From NCBI GenBank assembly GCA_009777365.1, contig WRLZ01000014.1:1-11549 (forward strand): DNA of 11,549 bases, written 5' to 3'. The notes under the pieces are model-generated. The model saw only the letters and a list, made by a program, of their open reading frames with translations, made no database searches and was not told the origin of the DNA. Positions 3,362 to 9,571 of this stretch are shown one piece after another. Source of the DNA: Candidatus Saccharimonadota bacterium. GTDB lineage: Bacteria; Patescibacteriota; Saccharimonadia; Saccharimonadales; Saccharimonadaceae. The number at the start of each line of letters is the position of its first letter. The stretch's first letter is position 1. The position numbers and the translations under genes were made by a program.

Positions 3362-5122
3362 ATGAAATATGAAAAATCACCCGTGGATCAGCAGAAAACG
3401 CTGACGGATTATCTTTTGGGACAGAATAAGATAAATAAACATGGGCGTTACGAAGAAGATGATGCTCCCGACTCTCTTTCTCCTATTTTTAAGGATTACT
3501 TGCTTGACTATCAGAAGGCTGAAGAGGAAAAGAGGAAGCAGAGGGAGCAGGGCTTGGAGGTTGACGGGTTGGCTCTGACTGTGGGGAAGGCTTATGAAAG
3601 GATCCGAAAGGTTATTGATTGGAAGGAGGAGAACGCTCTGCGGAGAACTGCTATTTATCGGGCCTTGAAAAGGCACCTGCTGGGGCAAATTTACGGGTTA
3701 AAGGGTGCAAGGGGCCTAAAGGCCGCCACTTCTGAGACGATGGTGATGGAGTTGCTTCGGACTGGGTATTTTGACATCACCTTGGTTTCGGACCGAGAAA
3801 TTGGTAAAATGGCGAAGATTTTGCAAAAATACGCCACCATATTGGCTAACTCGAAGAAGACAAGGGAGAAAGATGGGCGAGGAAAGTCAAAGAGGCGGGA
3901 TATAAGGCAACAGATGAAATTTCAGACTTGGGTATTGGAGATTGCCGCCTGCGAGATAGAGGAATGCCTGGCGCCAGCGCCTAAGGAGAAGGCGAATATT
4001 GACCTGATGGTAGCGGTGATGAGGCAAAGAATGAAAGTTGAACCAGCTGATGGTTTGGGTGAGTTGGATAGAGATATTCAGATTGAATTGGCGGTGCGGC
4101 GGGCGTTATTTAGTGCGGATAATCCGACTCTGGGTTATCAGGTTATAAAAATGCGTTATCCGTTTTGGCTGAAGAATAGTAAGGGTGATGAAATAAGTCA
4201 GAAAAGCGAAGAGATTTATGAGCAGGTTCAGCTTGATATAAAGAGTCGGAATGGGCTTGTGTTTAGTAATATAACTAAGAAATATGATGCGGCTTATAGG
4301 TTGATTATTGATATTATGGATAAGATTGAACCGGAAGTGGATGCGAAGGGACGGCGGGCGTTATTTAAGGATAAAAAATGGGTGGATAAGCAGACAGAAG
4401 AGACTTATGCGATCAGGCTGAAGAGTTTGAAAAATAGGTTGTTTCGATCGGCGGTGTGGTATACATTATCTATTCTGGTCGCCAACTCGGCTACCTTTAT
4501 AATAGTGGATGGGCCACTGGCGAGACTGCTTGGGTTCCAATTCACTTGGCTTTCGATAGCGGCGGCGGTTTTGTTTCCCAGCTTGATTATGTTTTTTCTG
4601 GTTATGATTATTCGGCCGCCAAAAGCTTCCAATTATATGGTGGTACAGGGCGAGGTGGAGAATATTGTTTTTGTGTCAGAGGAAGAGAGTGTCTACCTGG
4701 TGAAACTCCGAAAGAAGAAAATGGCGCTTTGGCTGAGGATACTCTTTAATGGGATGAACGTGATTTTTGGATTGGCTGGGTTGTATTTTATCTACTGGGT
4801 GTCGTCTGGTCTTGGCTTGCCGCCGACTTCTGCCTATATAAACGTGCTGTGCGTTACGATGGTGTTTTTTGCTGGCATGTCTGTGAAGAAGAAGTCGCAA
4901 GAGATTACGATTGAAGAAAGGGGTAGCTTTCTGGAATTTCTGTGGGATTTGTTTTCTTTGCCCATGGCGAAGATCGGTTCGTGGGTTACTAACAAATGGC
5001 GGGAGCATAATGTGGTGGCGATTCTTTTTAGCACGTTGATTGATACACCTTTTAGCGCCTTGATCGGAGTGATTAGCGATTGGCGGGCCTACCTCAAGGA
5101 TCGAGTGGCGGAGATGGAGTAG
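3362..5122 (+). CDS. Large multi-pass membrane protein of unknown function
   Basis: I do not recognise a named family. The 586-residue protein has a long charged, mostly helical soluble N-terminal half (about 1-360), with a Lys/Glu-rich coiled-coil-like stretch around 50-95 and a very basic segment at 164-185. Four strongly hydrophobic segments follow in two pairs, about 364-383, 395-416, 456-479 and 488-507. A polar hairpin (417-455, containing VVQGEVENIVFVSEEE) separates the pairs. A last amphipathic stretch (about 550-571) precedes the charged C-terminus. There is no signal peptide and no recognisable catalytic motif. It has its own promoter at 3314-3342 and is followed by a 276-base gap, so it is probably monocistronic. 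The start at 3362 has a purine-rich site only four bases upstream, a short spacing, but no better start is apparent. The function is unknown; a lineage-restricted envelope protein is a guess. Confidence 0.75.
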   Translation: MKYEKSPVDQQKTLTDYLLGQNKINKHGRYEEDDAPDSLSPIFKDYLLDYQKAEEEKRKQREQGLEVDGLALTVGKAYERIRKVIDWKEENALRRTAIYRALKRHLLGQIYGLKGARGLKAATSETMVMELLRTGYFDITLVSDREIGKMAKILQKYATILANSKKTREKDGRGKSKRRDIRQQMKFQTWVLEIAACEIEECLAPAPKEKANIDLMVAVMRQRMKVEPADGLGELDRDIQIELAVRRALFSADNPTLGYQVIKMRYPFWLKNSKGDEISQKSEEIYEQVQLDIKSRNGLVFSNITKKYDAAYRLIIDIMDKIEPEVDAKGRRALFKDKKWVDKQTEETYAIRLKSLKNRLFRSAVWYTLSILVANSATFIIVDGPLARLLGFQFTWLSIAAAVLFPSLIMFFLVMIIRPPKASNYMVVQGEVENIVFVSEEESVYLVKLRKKKMALWLRILFNGMNVIFGLAGLYFIYWVSSGLGLPPTSAYINVLCVTMVFFAGMSVKKKSQEITIEERGSFLEFLWDLFSLPMAKIGSWVTNKWREHNVVAILFSTLIDTPFSALIGVISDWRAYLKDRVAEME

Positions 5123-7641: not shown

Positions 7642-8334
7642 ATGAAGATAGGCGGCCTTATCAAGACATCCCTGGTGGATTATCCCGGTAAGGTTGCCTG
7701 TTCGATTTTTACGATTGGATGCAACTTTCGATGCGGGTTTTGTCATAATCCAGAACTGGTAGATCCGATCCGATATATCCAGGAGATCCCGGAGGAGTTG
7801 GTGTTTGAGTTCTTAGAAAAGAGGAAGGACAACCTCGACGGAGTGGCGATTAGTGGCGGAGAGCCAACCGTTCAGCCAGATTTGGCGAAGTTTTTGAGGC
7901 GCGTCAAGAAACTGGGGCTCTTGGTCAAACTAGATAGCAATGGGAGCAATCCTGATGTTCTCGAGGACTTGTTCGGGCAAAATCTGGTGGACTTTATCGC
8001 GATGGACGTCAAGGGGCCGATCGAGAAATATGAGTCGATTATGGGCTGGCCAGCCGGGGCGAAATGTAAGAGAAGTATTGATTTGATCCTTGCGTCAGGA
8101 ATATCGCATGAATTTCGGACAACGGTCGTGAAGGGTATGCTTGAGGTAGAGGATTTTGAGGAGGTTGGGCAGTTGGTGCAGGGGGCGGAGCGGTTCGCCT
8201 TGCAACATTTTCGCGCGATTCCCGAGATGGTGAATACGGAAGAATATAAGGATGCAAAAACATTCACGGAGGGGGAATTCGAGCAGGCGAGGAAGATTAT
8301 GGCGAGGTATGTGAAGAAGGTGGTGGTGCACTAG
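7642..8334 (+). CDS. nrdG: Anaerobic ribonucleotide reductase activase, radical SAM protein
   Basis: Uses a [4Fe-4S] cluster and S-adenosylmethionine to generate the glycyl radical on NrdD. The start GLIKTSLVDYPGK (5-17) is typical of the bacterial NrdG/PflA-like activases (COG1180 type). The cluster motif CNFRCGFC gives Cys27, Cys31 and Cys34 (CxxxCxxC), followed by the SAM-binding SGGEPTVQP (71-79), KLDSNGS (96-102) and MDVKGP (121-126). At 230 residues it is complete and lacks any extra ferredoxin insert. GGAG at 7633-7636, overlapping the nrdD stop, is the ribosome site six bases before the ATG. Its TAG stop lies in the palindrome CTAG (8331-8334), shared with the stop of the opposing cassette A. 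No convincing terminator lies between nrdG and the cassette. Confidence 0.95.
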   Translation: MKIGGLIKTSLVDYPGKVACSIFTIGCNFRCGFCHNPELVDPIRYIQEIPEELVFEFLEKRKDNLDGVAISGGEPTVQPDLAKFLRRVKKLGLLVKLDSNGSNPDVLEDLFGQNLVDFIAMDVKGPIEKYESIMGWPAGAKCKRSIDLILASGISHEFRTTVVKGMLEVEDFEEVGQLVQGAERFALQHFRAIPEMVNTEEYKDAKTFTEGEFEQARKIMARYVKKVVVH

Positions 8335-8513
8335 GTGTGGTACGACGTTGTGCAGACTATTCCACGAAAACCGAGTGCCGTAATAGCACCTCCAGTATGG
8401 TAACTGATAGACTCGATCCCCGCACCAGTGGTATCGATTGAATGACCACCACGGCCGAACCAAGAACTGCCAGAGACAAAAGAATTGCGATACGCTCCCG
8501 ACCACCCAGAGGA
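8331..8513 (-). pseudogene. Silent C-terminal cassette A of a surface/pilin-like protein (no start codon)
   Basis: Reading on the minus strand from 8513, 60 codons run unbroken to a TAG at 8333-8331. The product begins SSGWSGAYRNSF, contains WFGRGG, then AGIESI, and ends with GFRGIV plus a short polar tail. In this frame a stop occurs seven codons upstream of SSGWSG and there is no ATG, so it cannot be expressed as it stands. It aligns end to end with cassettes B and C. The RGG ... GFRG pattern resembles the C-terminal part of C-type-lectin/formylglycine-generating-enzyme folds and the variable tails of CPR pilin-like proteins; that assignment is from memory and tentative. The intact frame despite divergence argues for a kept coding reservoir rather than a decayed gene. 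It could also be the 3' end of a gene whose front was lost. Confidence 0.6.
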
Positions 8514-8514
8514 T
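8494..8514 (-). repeat. 21-base cassette-head repeat, copy A (inverted)
   Basis: On the minus strand this is the 21-base element beginning ATCCTCTGGGTGGTCGGG and ending AGC. It differs by one base from copy B (8564-8584) and by one from copy C (9370-9390). It encodes SSGWSG and marks the exact point where similarity between the three cassettes begins. Confidence 0.85.
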
Positions 8515-8563
8515 TCGGTATATGGTTTGTCTTAGACTTAGTATCGTACAAATTATCTTCTCT

Positions 8564-8584
8564 ATCCTCTAGGTGGTCGGGAGC
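8564..8584 (+). repeat. 21-base cassette-head repeat, copy B (direct)
   Basis: Begins ATCCTCTAGGTGGTCGGG and ends AGC, with one substitution (GGG to AGG, Gly to Arg) relative to copy A. Copies A and B form an inverted repeat with a 49-base spacer (8515-8563) in which I see no gene. Reading frames lead away from the spacer on both sides. Confidence 0.85.
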
Positions 8585-8750
8585 ACAAGCTAATTCTGTC
8601 CTCACAACCTTTTCCTGGTTCATGCGTGGAGGCCTCTCAACCCTTTCCACTCCCTCTTATGCTGGAGTTGAGTCCATAGGTAGCAACTCTGGTAATGCTG
8701 GTATATCAAGGGGTTTTCGTGGGGTGGTAAGTAAACACAACAACAATTAG
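8565..8750 (+). pseudogene. Silent C-terminal cassette B of a surface/pilin-like protein
   Basis: From 8565, 61 codons run to TAG (8748-8750). The product begins SSRWSGAQANSV, carries WFMRGG, then AGVESIGSNSGN, RGFRGVV and an Asn-rich end. It shares every landmark with cassettes A and C, and the segment 8661-8680 matches 9461-9480 at 18 of 20 bases. The frame happens to stay open upstream to an ATG at 8442, but those codons are only the antisense of cassette A and the spacer. A 102-residue gene call starting there would therefore be misleading. A stem-loop begins inside the stop codon. Codon use (many TCC, TCT, CTC, ACC) differs from the purine-rich neighbouring genes. Confidence 0.6.
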
Positions 8751-8774
8751 GCCGACCTTATACAGGTCAGCCTA
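8748..8774. terminator. Stem-loop directly after cassette B
   Basis: TAGGCCGACCT (8748-8758) pairs with AGGTCAGCCTA (8764-8774) around a 5-base loop: eleven pairs with one C-A mismatch. No T-run follows on the plus strand. On the minus strand AATTGTTGTTG follows, so it may weakly terminate transcripts arriving from the tRNA operon. It could instead be part of the cassette architecture. Confidence 0.4.
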
Positions 8775-8796
8775 GTGTAATGCCTAGCAGAAACAT

Positions 8797-9000
8797 CTAT
8801 ACTTGTACTTGTAGCTTTCGTATTTGCTCAGGGGATAATCCCGTAACATCGGCCACATCTTCGGGTTTATCGCCACGTTGCAGTAGAGATTTTGCCACTC
8901 TTAGTATCCCTTCCGCTATGCCTTCGTCTTTCCCATCAAAGTATGCGCTGGAGTGTCCGGCATCGAGTATTGCCTGTGCTTTTGCTGTCAGACACAACAA
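8797..9000 (-). pseudogene. C-terminal fragment of an Rpn-family (PD-(D/E)XK) recombination-promoting nuclease/putative transposase
   Basis: The 67-codon minus-strand frame has a tail typical of Rpn/PDDEXK_2 proteins: GKDEGIAEGILRVAKSLLQRGD (23-44) followed by a small helical module VADVTGLSPEQIRKLQ (49-64), the form usually seen as 'AEGI...LLxxG...IAxxTGLSxEEIxxL'. The nuclease domain (usually about 200 residues upstream) is absent, because the frame is closed by a TGA upstream and the tRNA-Pro gene begins some 30 bases away. Only a TTG start without a ribosome site is available, so it is probably a remnant. A freestanding small C-terminal protein, as described for E. coli rpn genes with internal starts, is possible but unsupported. 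Three GCTGTCA copies (8984-8990, 9003-9009, 9015-9021) sit at its upstream border. Confidence 0.55.
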
Positions 9001-9031
9001 CTGCTGTCAAAATGGCTGTCAAATGATTTTT

Positions 9032-9109
9032 TGGTCGGGGCTATAGGATTCGAACCTACGACCTCACGGTCCCAAACCGCGCGCGCTAGCCGGACTGCGC
9101 CAAGCCCCG
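9032..9109 (-). tRNA. tRNA-Pro (anticodon TGG), CCA encoded
   Basis: The minus-strand sequence folds as a full cloverleaf: acceptor stem CGGGGCT/AGCCCCG, D stem GCGC/GCGC, anticodon stem CGCGG/CCGTG around loop TTTGGGA (anticodon TGG), and T arm GTAGG-TTCGAAT-CCTAT. Discriminator A at 9035 is followed by template-encoded CCA (9034-9032). It lies 53 bases downstream of tRNA-Thr and probably shares its transcript. Its 3' end shares CCCCGACCA with the reverse complement of cassette repeat C. Confidence 0.95.
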
Positions 9110-9138
9110 ATATAATCTGTTAATAAGGTTCGATTTTT

Positions 9139-9157
9139 ACTACTCATTCATAGTAGT
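9139..9157. other. Small stem-loop between the two tRNAs
   Basis: ACTACT (9139-9144) pairs perfectly with AGTAGT (9152-9157) around a 7-base loop. On the minus strand it is followed by an A-run, not a T-run, so it is not a terminator for the tRNA transcript. It may act as a spacer or processing structure in the tRNA precursor. Confidence 0.4.
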
Positions 9158-9162
9158 GTTAA

Positions 9163-9238
9163 TGGAGCCACGACCGAGGCTTGAACTCGGGGCCTCATCC
9201 TTACCATGGATGCGCTCTACCGACTGAGCTATCGCGGC
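9163..9238 (-). tRNA. tRNA-Thr (anticodon GGT), CCA encoded
   Basis: Minus-strand cloverleaf: acceptor GCCGCGA/TCGTGGC (one G-T pair), D arm with AGCTCAGTCGGTAGAGC, anticodon stem CATCC/GGATG around loop ATGGTAA (anticodon GGT), and T arm CCGAG-TTCAAGC-CTCGG. Discriminator T (base 9166) is followed by template-encoded CCA (9165-9163). It starts about four bases after the predicted transcription start of the promoter at 9249-9277. Confidence 0.95.
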
Positions 9239-9248
9239 CGATACACTT

Positions 9249-9277
9249 ATTATATCTCAAGCTGTGTTTTCTGTCAA
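9249..9277 (-). promoter_or_regulatory. Consensus sigma-70 promoter of the tRNA-Thr/tRNA-Pro operon
   Basis: On the minus strand, a perfect TTGACA (9277-9272) and a perfect TATAAT (9254-9249) are separated by exactly 17 bases. Transcription would start near 9242, just before tRNA-Thr. This is the strongest promoter in the window, fitting stable-RNA expression. Confidence 0.9.
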
Positions 9278-9290
9278 GATGCCTTGAGGT

Positions 9291-9305
9291 AATTGCTTCG
9301 CAATT
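9291..9305. other. Perfect stem-loop upstream of the tRNA promoter
   Basis: AATTGC (9291-9296) and GCAATT (9300-9305) form a perfect six-pair stem with a TTC loop. On the plus strand it runs into TTTTC, weakly terminator-like, but no plus-strand gene lies directly upstream. The rest of 9278-9369 shows no gene on either strand. Confidence 0.35.
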
Positions 9306-9369
9306 TTCAAAAATCGCCCAAAATACAAGCTGTTTTATAGCCTCTATCTCCCAAAAGCCATTCTATCAA

Positions 9370-9390
9370 ATCCTCTGGGTGGTCGGGGGC
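9370..9390 (+). repeat. 21-base cassette-head repeat, copy C (direct)
   Basis: Begins ATCCTCTGGGTGGTCGGG and ends GGC, with one substitution (A to G, silent) relative to copy A. It is in direct orientation with copy B, about 800 bases away, and inverted relative to copy A. The tRNA operon lies between it and the other copies. Confidence 0.85.
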
Positions 9391-9571
9391 GTTTTCTCAG
9401 TCGTTCGGCGACGGTGACCCATGGTTCACGCGTGGCGGCAGTTCGCTCACTCTCCCTTTCGCTGGAGTCGAGTCCATCGGTGTCACTTATGGCGACACTA
9501 ATGCTCTCGTCGGTTTTCGTGGGGGAGGCTACTGGATTAGGTTGGCGTATGGTATAATAAGACTGAGATAG
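9371..9571 (+). pseudogene. Silent C-terminal cassette C of a surface/pilin-like protein
   Basis: From 9371, 66 codons run to TAG (9569-9571). The product begins SSGWSGAFSQSFGDG, has PWFTRGG, FAGVESIGVTYGD and VGFRGGGYW, then a hydrophobic/basic tail (IRLAYGIIRLR). That tail overlaps the extended -10 promoter of the next gene, so the original domain end probably lies near 9525 and the last codons are read-through into flanking DNA. In frame upstream, a TAG at 9338-9340 closes the ORF and there is no ATG. Substitutions relative to cassette B include many silent third-position changes of all types. This argues against adenine-directed mutagenesis and for ordinary divergence under selection. Confidence 0.6.
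9550..9558 (+). promoter_or_regulatory. Extended -10 promoter upstream of the GH3 gene
   Basis: TGGTATAAT at 9550-9558 is a perfect TATAAT preceded by the TGN extended -10 motif. No good -35 box lies 17 bases upstream (TACTGG at 9530-9535), which extended -10 promoters tolerate. Transcription would start near 9565, about 66 bases before the first possible GH3 start. It lies within the 3' end of cassette C. Confidence 0.6.

What the first reader, a model, noticed from the sequence alone, without database searches (positions are those of the whole stretch)
8331..9571. Three start-less C-terminal cassettes that each open at the same 21-base repeat: a possible shufflon-like or silent-donor variation system
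Seen: frames of 60, 61 and 66 codons (A minus 8513-8331, B plus 8565-8750, C plus 9371-9571). All begin at a 21-base element with one-base differences, all show WSGA, WFxRGG, AG(V/I)ESI and GFRG in the same order, and all are unbroken to a stop. None has a start codon of its own or any shared sequence upstream of the repeat. Known: R64-type shufflons and pilS/vls systems store alternative protein ends in this start-less form. Inference: the repeat is a crossover or conversion boundary and the cassettes feed an expressed pilin-like or lectin-fold surface gene elsewhere. Such a system around housekeeping tRNA and nrd genes in a reduced genome would be new to me.
Basis: partly seen in the sequence, partly recalled or inferred. 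Interest (0 to 1): 0.9.

Follow-up and report, generated by a model that had tools for sequence, protein, structure and literature searches.

The report
Genome-wide archive of silent protein ends
A tiny uncultured bacterium carries about eighty silent, interchangeable versions of one surface-protein end scattered between its ordinary genes, apparently written by a mutation-making reverse transcriptase system and kept as spare parts.

Summary
The three cassettes belong to a dispersed family: 88 profile matches at E<=0.001 (91 at E<=1, 42 contigs) in a 645-kb, 64%-complete genome. Each has DNA-conserved 5' and 3' arms (AATCCTCTGGGTGGTCGGGGGC; CGGTTTTCGTGGGG) around a variable, start-less, in-frame core; 70 of 74 complete dispersed copies are intact. 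A full-length gene (VP1) ends with the same arms and looks like a diversity-generating retroelement (DGR) target, with a hairpin after its variable region; five template-RNA units lie elsewhere. Some cassettes differ from a template mainly at adenines. A same-genus genome has canonical VP, RT and TR. One cassette repeats 135 of 135 bases upstream of VP1's variable region but holds another core. A second genome, G303, shows the same architecture with unrelated arms: 52 of 52 two-armed cassettes intact. Best reading: a DGR-written archive of silent variable regions that exchange at the arms. Adenine-directed writing is well supported for the youngest copies; recall into VP1 is inferred. No RT was found in this assembly.

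The parts
8331..8513 (-). Cassette A: start-less frame SSGWSGA..GFRG and on to a stop
   Evidence: C14:8361-8510
8494..8515 (-). 5' arm of A (AATCCTCTGGGTGGTCGGGAGC)
8361..8373 (-). 3' arm of A (GGTTTTCGTGGA)
8511..8567 (.). 57-nt spacer of the head-to-head pair A/B; related spacers at C2 (two), C30, C34, C61
8565..8750 (+). Cassette B
   Evidence: C14:8568-8723
8564..8584 (+). 5' arm of B (one further base change, CTCTAGG)
8712..8724 (+). 3' arm of B (GGTTTTCGTGGGG)
9334..9369 (+). Degenerate 5' flank motif of C (approximate limits)
   Evidence: profile from about -37 to -10 of 77 cassettes
9371..9571 (+). Cassette C
   Evidence: C14:9374-9523
9370..9390 (+). 5' arm of C
9512..9524 (+). 3' arm of C

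Best explanation
The window holds three members of a genome-wide library of silent variable-region cassettes belonging to a diversity-generating retroelement (DGR). Template RNAs are copied by a mutagenic reverse transcriptase that randomises adenines, and the copies enter the 3' end of a surface-protein gene (VP1). Versions of that variable region are deposited as start-less cassettes in mostly intergenic DNA. Two short arms, shared by templates, gene and cassettes, bound the exchangeable part, so cores can move between cassettes and, by inference, back into VP1 by arm-bounded gene conversion. Shown: dispersed cassettes, DNA-conserved arms, open frames confined to the stretch between the arms, adenine-biased origin of several cassettes, different cores between like flanks, the full-length gene, the template units. 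Inferred: an RT in this species (not in the assembly), deposition from VP1 as the general route, transfer from cassettes into VP1, the recombination enzyme, and any adaptive benefit.
For: (1) Frames: 70 of 74 complete dispersed cassettes are in frame without a stop. The 72 in-frame units hold 6 stops in 3312 codons, all in three units; the other two sense frames of the 69 intact ones hold 69 of 3112 and 203 of 3112. Stops reappear outside the arms: codons -5 to -1, 0 of 356; -10 to -6, 16 of 355; downstream 4-7, 11 of 288. (2) Arms are conserved as DNA. Among 79 dispersed units found by protein profile, with synonymous positions left free, 70 have the 5' arm (TCC 70/70, TCG 70/70, GGG 66/70 for the last Gly) and 68 the 3' arm (GGT 67/68, TTT 67/68, CGT 68/68); interior RGG codons use 4-6 synonyms. 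(3) Adenine signature: C1:14184 differs from TR48 at 19 of 36 adenines and 5 of 85 other bases; A-tolerant matching runs exceed C-, G- or T-tolerant ones in the youngest copies. (4) C2:9672 repeats 135 of 135 nt upstream of VP1's variable region with another core. (5) Near-identical cores in unrelated flanks, C26:2683 and C18:5230. (6) VP1 has a 12-bp hairpin 30 nt after its variable region, as BPP-1-type targets do. (7) Five TR units share a 3' flank with 62 predicted pairs, 21 with a compensatory change in at least one of five sequences. (8) Same-genus G001: VP, RT, TR; in the repeat proper the VR/TR differences lie at adenines. (9) G303: 61 copies (59 exact) of a different 30-nt arm, 52 of 52 two-armed cassettes intact, 1 stop in 4499 codons against 398 of 4444 and 154 of 4443 in other frames, plus an RT fragment.
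Against: No RT (PF00078, E up to 10) and no relative of the G001 142-aa ORF (Avd candidate) in the assembled 64% of G000. VP1's present core shares no exact stretch of 24 nt or more with any of the other 85 units compared, so no cassette-to-VP1 transfer is caught. VP1's variable region is not a clean copy of any known TR: 15 of 28 adenines but also 16 of 119 other bases differ. VP1's 5' arm differs by one base from the cassette arm. Of three close cassette pairs only one is mainly synonymous (5:1); the others are 2:9 and 1:15. The four intact TRs do not explain older cores (up to 41 of 88-90 non-A mismatches), and the adenine excess is weak for C8:9217 (10/33 against 10/88, p 0.025). Cores of head-to-head loci are not all unrelated (two of the left-core comparisons score 35 and 32, above background). 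Nothing here comes from strains or reads.
Confidence: 0.6

Rival explanations
1. Retro-debris: the cassettes are off-target copies made by the DGR machinery or its cDNA, inserted between genes and without function afterwards.
For: Adenine signature in copies outside genes. Lineage-specific burst: with this profile no other genome came near G000 in draws of 61, 246 and 394 (overlapping). AAY template codons cannot become stops by A-mutation alone (sequence of the TRs).
Against: Cores with up to about 45% non-A difference from the templates have almost no stops, while random substitution at 20-30% per site would break 58-68% of cores. The arms stay conserved in these too. G303 repeats the pattern with other arms.
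Confidence: 0.15
2. A silent-donor gene-conversion system of the Anaplasma msp2/p44 kind whose cassettes arose by ordinary duplication; the DGR acts on VP1 only and is incidental.
For: Conserved ends around a variable middle, dispersed copies, like cores in unlike flanks; C2:9672 carries a plain copy of VP1's end.
Against: Several cassettes are template-like apart from adenines. A-change stays at 0.52-0.60 while non-A change rises from 0.17 to 0.41 over thirds of 27 copies.
Confidence: 0.12
3. The cassettes are themselves remote DGR acceptors, rewritten in place by retrohoming.
For: They carry the same body as VR and TR. For BPP-1, sequence upstream of VR is dispensable and 8 bp or more of identity suffice at the 5' side (PMC3240598, passages).
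Against: They lack the 28-nt 3' extension shared by VP1 and the TR units (six copies in the assembly) and a hairpin: 4 of 69 against 60 of 2000 random pieces.
Confidence: 0.06
4. A shufflon-type site-specific inversion system.
For: Start-less alternative C-termini opening at a short repeat; head-to-head pairs.
Against: Dispersed over 42 contigs; cassettes are bounded at both ends and VP1 keeps its own tail after the 3' arm.
Confidence: 0.02

Closest known systems
Diversity-generating retroelements (Bordetella phage BPP-1 type; DGRs of Patescibacteria)
   Same: C-terminal variable region, TR with AAY codons, adenine-directed changes, hairpin after VR, predicted structured RNA 3' of TR; RT and TR beside VP in the same-genus genome G001
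   Different: Five separate TR units with no RT in the assembly, and about 80 silent VR-like cassettes outside any gene; in the passages seen, remote or multiple DGR targets are genes
Anaplasma phagocytophilum msp2/p44 and A. marginale msp2 functional pseudogenes
   Same: About 100 silent copies with conserved 5' and 3' ends around a variable middle, one expression site, recombination within the repertoire (PMC11946796, passages)
   Different: Arms of only 22 and 14 nt; cores trace to adenine mutagenesis of RNA templates; unrelated protein; transfer into the expressed gene not observed here
Borrelia vls and Neisseria pilS
   Same: Silent cassettes feeding one expressed gene (vls: abstracts seen; pilS recalled)
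   Different: vls cassettes form contiguous arrays; here they are dispersed, some in head-to-head pairs
R64 shufflon
   Same: Alternative start-less C-termini opening at a repeat (recalled)
   Different: No clustered invertible block; both ends bounded

Membership tests
DGR | DGR-type reverse transcriptase in the genome | tested here: inconclusive
   None found in G000 (64% complete). Beside VP in G001: PF00078 E 1.7e-18, best PDB sequence hit 8ub7_A, E 6.5e-28 (that this entry is the BPP-1 DGR RT is recalled). NCBIfam gives only sub-cut-off group II, retron and Drt matches. RT fragment in G303
DGR | TR/VR pair differing mainly at TR adenines | tested here: met
   G001; G000 cassette C1:14184, 19/36 A against 5/85 other. 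VP1 itself is less clean: 15/28 against 16/119
DGR | 3' homology plus hairpin after the VR of the target gene | tested here: met
   VP1: 12-bp stem, 3-nt loop; 28-nt extension shared with five TR units
DGR | The cassettes themselves are DGR targets (extension and hairpin) | tested here: not met
   Hairpin in 4 of 69, background 60 of 2000; extension only at VP1 and TR units
Silent-donor gene conversion (msp2/p44-like) | Silent copies with conserved ends and an open variable middle | tested here: met
   G303. Silence is inferred from the lack of a start and of an upstream frame, not from expression data
Silent-donor gene conversion (msp2/p44-like) | A full-length gene bearing the same ends | tested here: met
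   VP1; a second full-length relative at C69 has diverged arms. Not found in G303
Silent-donor gene conversion (msp2/p44-like) | Observed transfer of a silent core into the expressed gene | not testable with these tools
   No reads or strains; no stretch of 24 nt or more shared with VP1's core
Shufflon | Clustered invertible segments | tested here: not met
   91 places at E<=1 on 42 contigs
Shufflon | Dedicated site-specific recombinase | not tested
   No recombinase search was run

The most novel reading that the evidence does not exclude
A two-stage diversification system with memory: a retroelement writes random variants of a surface protein, working variants are archived as intact silent cassettes across the genome, and the archive is recalled by recombination at short arms. 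It exists with unrelated arm sequences in two genera of one family of reduced-genome bacteria, so it may have arisen twice.
Probability: 0.4. Interest if true: 0.95.

Novelty: new variant of a known kind. Interest (0 to 1): 0.86.

Why it matters
DGRs and silent-cassette gene conversion are two powerful prokaryotic ways to vary a surface protein, and the papers seen here treat them apart. A genome that joins them would combine random search with storage of tested solutions, in a cell with a very small genome. It also offers a natural record: cassettes of graded age give a readable history of DGR output, so selection on DGR products could be measured from one genome.

Tried and rejected
Viral origin: the 19-base arm has three exact matches in viral contigs, none with a 3' arm or the frame, so chance. 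Structure: AlphaFold2 of the VP1 C-terminal part (4 sequences) gave mean pLDDT 29 and was discarded. Contig ends inside cassettes were considered as a sign of population variation and dropped, because a hand estimate (no call) put about as many there by chance. Plain neutral decay as the origin of the 5' flank motif was doubted because G is nearly absent at many positions; whether the motif is a target site or a relic of VP1 stays open. No Rfam family matched three of the TR-bearing loci and two others searched at gathering thresholds, apart from the two tRNAs of the window (sources window, L024, L044, L045, L068). A first AAY-codon count returned no pairs through a slicing error and was redone. 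An early frame count labelled the units disrupted through a one-base offset and was corrected. A first codon count of the arms used units picked by part of those same letters, so it was redone on profile-found units.

Rows set aside: of 91 profile places three with E above 0.02 were not studied further; two were not covered by the first fetch and were read later. Complete units needed both arms; four TR units and VP1's own end were set aside before the frame count. The mosaic test used the 27 cassettes of template length, of 69. In G303, 57 distinct arm copies with at least 60 nt upstream were examined, and 52 of them had the 5' arm. In some searches only part of the candidates was scored (for G000 28 of 101 and 17 of 98).
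Full report
What was checked. The three frames, their shared motifs and the 21-base element are as described. The neighbours are ordinary: matches to ribulose-phosphate epimerase, PfkB kinase, MgsA/RarA-type ATPase, NrdD, a radical-SAM protein, GH3 glycosidase and YjbR, and tRNA-Pro and tRNA-Thr.

Scale. A degenerate form of the element has 78 matches in the window's genome (G000, 645,058 bases, 88 contigs, 64% complete) and none for the reversed control; two are chance sites. A profile of 33 translated cassettes finds 91 places at E<=1 on 42 contigs, 88 of them at E<=0.001. They include five template units and the ends of two full-length genes. Most lie between genes: 14 of 84 overlap an open frame of 150 codons or more by over 30 nt, while such frames cover 56% of the fetched bases.

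Anatomy. In 77 aligned cassettes conservation is nearly complete over AATCCTCTGGGTGGTCGGGGGC and, in 71, over CGGTTTTCGTGGGG; it falls sharply outside, apart from a weaker motif from about -37 to -10. That alignment was anchored on part of the arm. A fairer test takes 79 dispersed units found by protein profile and leaves synonymous positions free: 70 have the 5' arm and 68 the 3' arm, with nearly one codon at each position, while interior RGG codons use four to six synonyms. Those interior codons mostly lack adenine too, so lack of mutable adenines does not by itself explain the invariance (inference). The open frame begins and ends with the arms: 70 of 74 complete dispersed cassettes are intact, core lengths fall into more than ten classes, and 72 of 73 keep the frame.

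The expressed gene. VP1 (C1:3102-5534) has the arms, with one base changed in the 5' arm, and lies beside recA. A second full-length relative (C69) has diverged arms. VP1's C-terminal part has a weak FGE-sulfatase match below Pfam's cut-off. DGR targets commonly end in a C-type-lectin fold (PMC8144416 and PMC7517822, passages); that FGE-sulfatase belongs to this fold is recalled.

The DGR link. In the same-genus genome G001 the homologous gene is followed by a reverse transcriptase and a template repeat. In the repeat proper the VR/TR differences lie at adenines; the aligner's whole local match also counts 15 differences at other bases, nearly all in the poorly matching stretch before it. The matching public record is JAISJL010000022.1, a MAG labelled Candidatus Nomurabacteria bacterium (identity with G001 inferred from coordinates and contig length). 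A 142-aa ORF beside the RT is where Avd would be; it met no Pfam cut-off and no NCBIfam family. In G000 a 28-nt sequence after the variable region occurs six times, at VP1 and at five TR units, one of which (C24) has a broken core. The TR units share about 200 nt of 3' sequence with a predicted fold of 62 pairs, 21 with at least one compensatory change; five sequences only. VP1 has a 12-bp hairpin 30 nt after its variable region, matching the target requirement shown for BPP-1 (PMC3240598, passages). Cassettes do not show it above background (4 of 69 against 60 of 2000). The G000 assembly holds no RT that the searches could find.

Origin of the cassettes. C1:14184 matches TR48 over its whole core except at 19 of 36 adenines and 5 of 85 other bases (Fisher p 2e-8 after choosing the best of four templates, so descriptive). 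C8:9217 is weaker (p 0.025). Window cassettes A and C show 22/36 against 18/85 and 24/36 against 22/85. Allowing mismatches at A gives much longer runs than at C, G or T for the youngest copies. In the three closest cores AAY codons change at positions 1, 2 and 3 in 13, 17 and 4 of 30 cases; among the 40 most distant, position 3 has nearly caught up (0.54, 0.55, 0.45). Over thirds of 27 copies the A-changed share is 0.52, 0.58, 0.60 while non-A change goes 0.17, 0.26, 0.41. This fits adenine scrambling at birth followed by slow change, but diversifying selection at the same codons would add to it, and the four templates do not account for the older cores.

Movement of cores. C2:9672 carries 135 of 135 bases of VP1 upstream sequence, then the arm, then a different core; C23:9882 has 114 of 132 with the same 5' limit within 3 bases. 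Near-identical cores lie in unrelated flanks (C26:2683 and C18:5230), and four further pairs share part or most of a core. Six head-to-head pairs share related spacers of 57-58 nt, one enlarged to 91 nt by an insert; in the clearest case, two loci on C2, spacers match at 60 of 64 positions while cores score 18 and 9 and outer flanks 11 and 10, against a background of mean 8.1, 95th percentile 11 and maximum 14. Among the other pairs some cores are more alike (scores 35 and 32). So cores differ between like flanks and agree between unlike flanks. Direction and enzyme are not shown.

A second case. In the same family but another genus, G303 (about 500 kb, 71% complete) has 61 copies, 59 exact, of a different 30-nt 3' arm. 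A 12-nt 5' arm, CAACTCGGCGTG or CAACTCGGCGTA, is present in 52 of 57 copies examined; all 52 are intact, with 1 stop in 4499 codons against 398 of 4444 and 154 of 4443 in the other frames. These cassettes were collected by DNA pattern, so the frame result is not built in. No full-length gene with these arms turned up: the longest frame among 59 matches is 168 aa. An RT fragment did. Two near-complete genomes of that genus, G010 and G287, have no match. G310, also of that genus, has four TR-like units with a common 3' flank whose cores differ largely at adenines by eye. With the G000 profile no other genome came near G000's number in draws of 61, 246 and 394 genomes, which overlap and in the larger draws scored only part of the candidates.

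Comparison and novelty. It works like msp2/p44 repertoires (PMC11946796, passages) with a DGR as the writer. Literature searches listed no paper whose title or abstract start reports silent DGR cassettes; passages of seven papers were read and none in full. The 2017 survey of DGRs in CPR and DPANN (recalled) was not seen.

Verdict. Real, not chance, and of high interest. The DGR assignment is strong for the templates and good for VP1, and incomplete for want of an RT in this assembly. Function of the cassettes as an exchangeable archive is the best explanation, at about 0.6.

Noticed in passing
G000 C8:9217, C1:14184, C2:8687, C26:3, C29:3864: A hairpin-bearing insert (of the type AGAGACACCCC..GGGGACCCCGTCGGA, about 34 nt at C2) interrupts the 5' arm in at least five cassettes: perhaps a small mobile element that targets the arm.
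   Followed up: no
window 8800-9000, minus: A 67-aa frame between cassettes B and C matches the C-terminal end of TIGR01784 (Rpn family recombination-promoting nuclease), E 2e-5, 24.6 bits against a cut-off of 52.1; probably a gene fragment.
   Followed up: partly
G000, flanks of several cassettes: An element like TTACAACATAAGCGTGATG recurs next to cassettes in either orientation; it may be an operator or a repeat of its own.
   Followed up: no
L099-L102 (G310): Four dispersed template-like units with the same 3' flank whose cores differ largely at adenines, as if templates themselves were copied by the mutagenic enzyme (by eye).
   Followed up: partly
L043:5732-6907, minus: recA lies directly downstream of VP1, on the opposite strand.
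   Followed up: no
window 3362-5122, plus: A 586-aa protein with hydrophobic stretches (by eye) and no Pfam family at E<=0.001.
   Followed up: no
G303, e.g. L103, L122, L139: Head-to-head pairs whose abutting 5' arms form a palindrome such as CACGCCGAGTTGGCCAACTCGGCGTG; 22 of 52 intact cassettes show it.
   Followed up: partly
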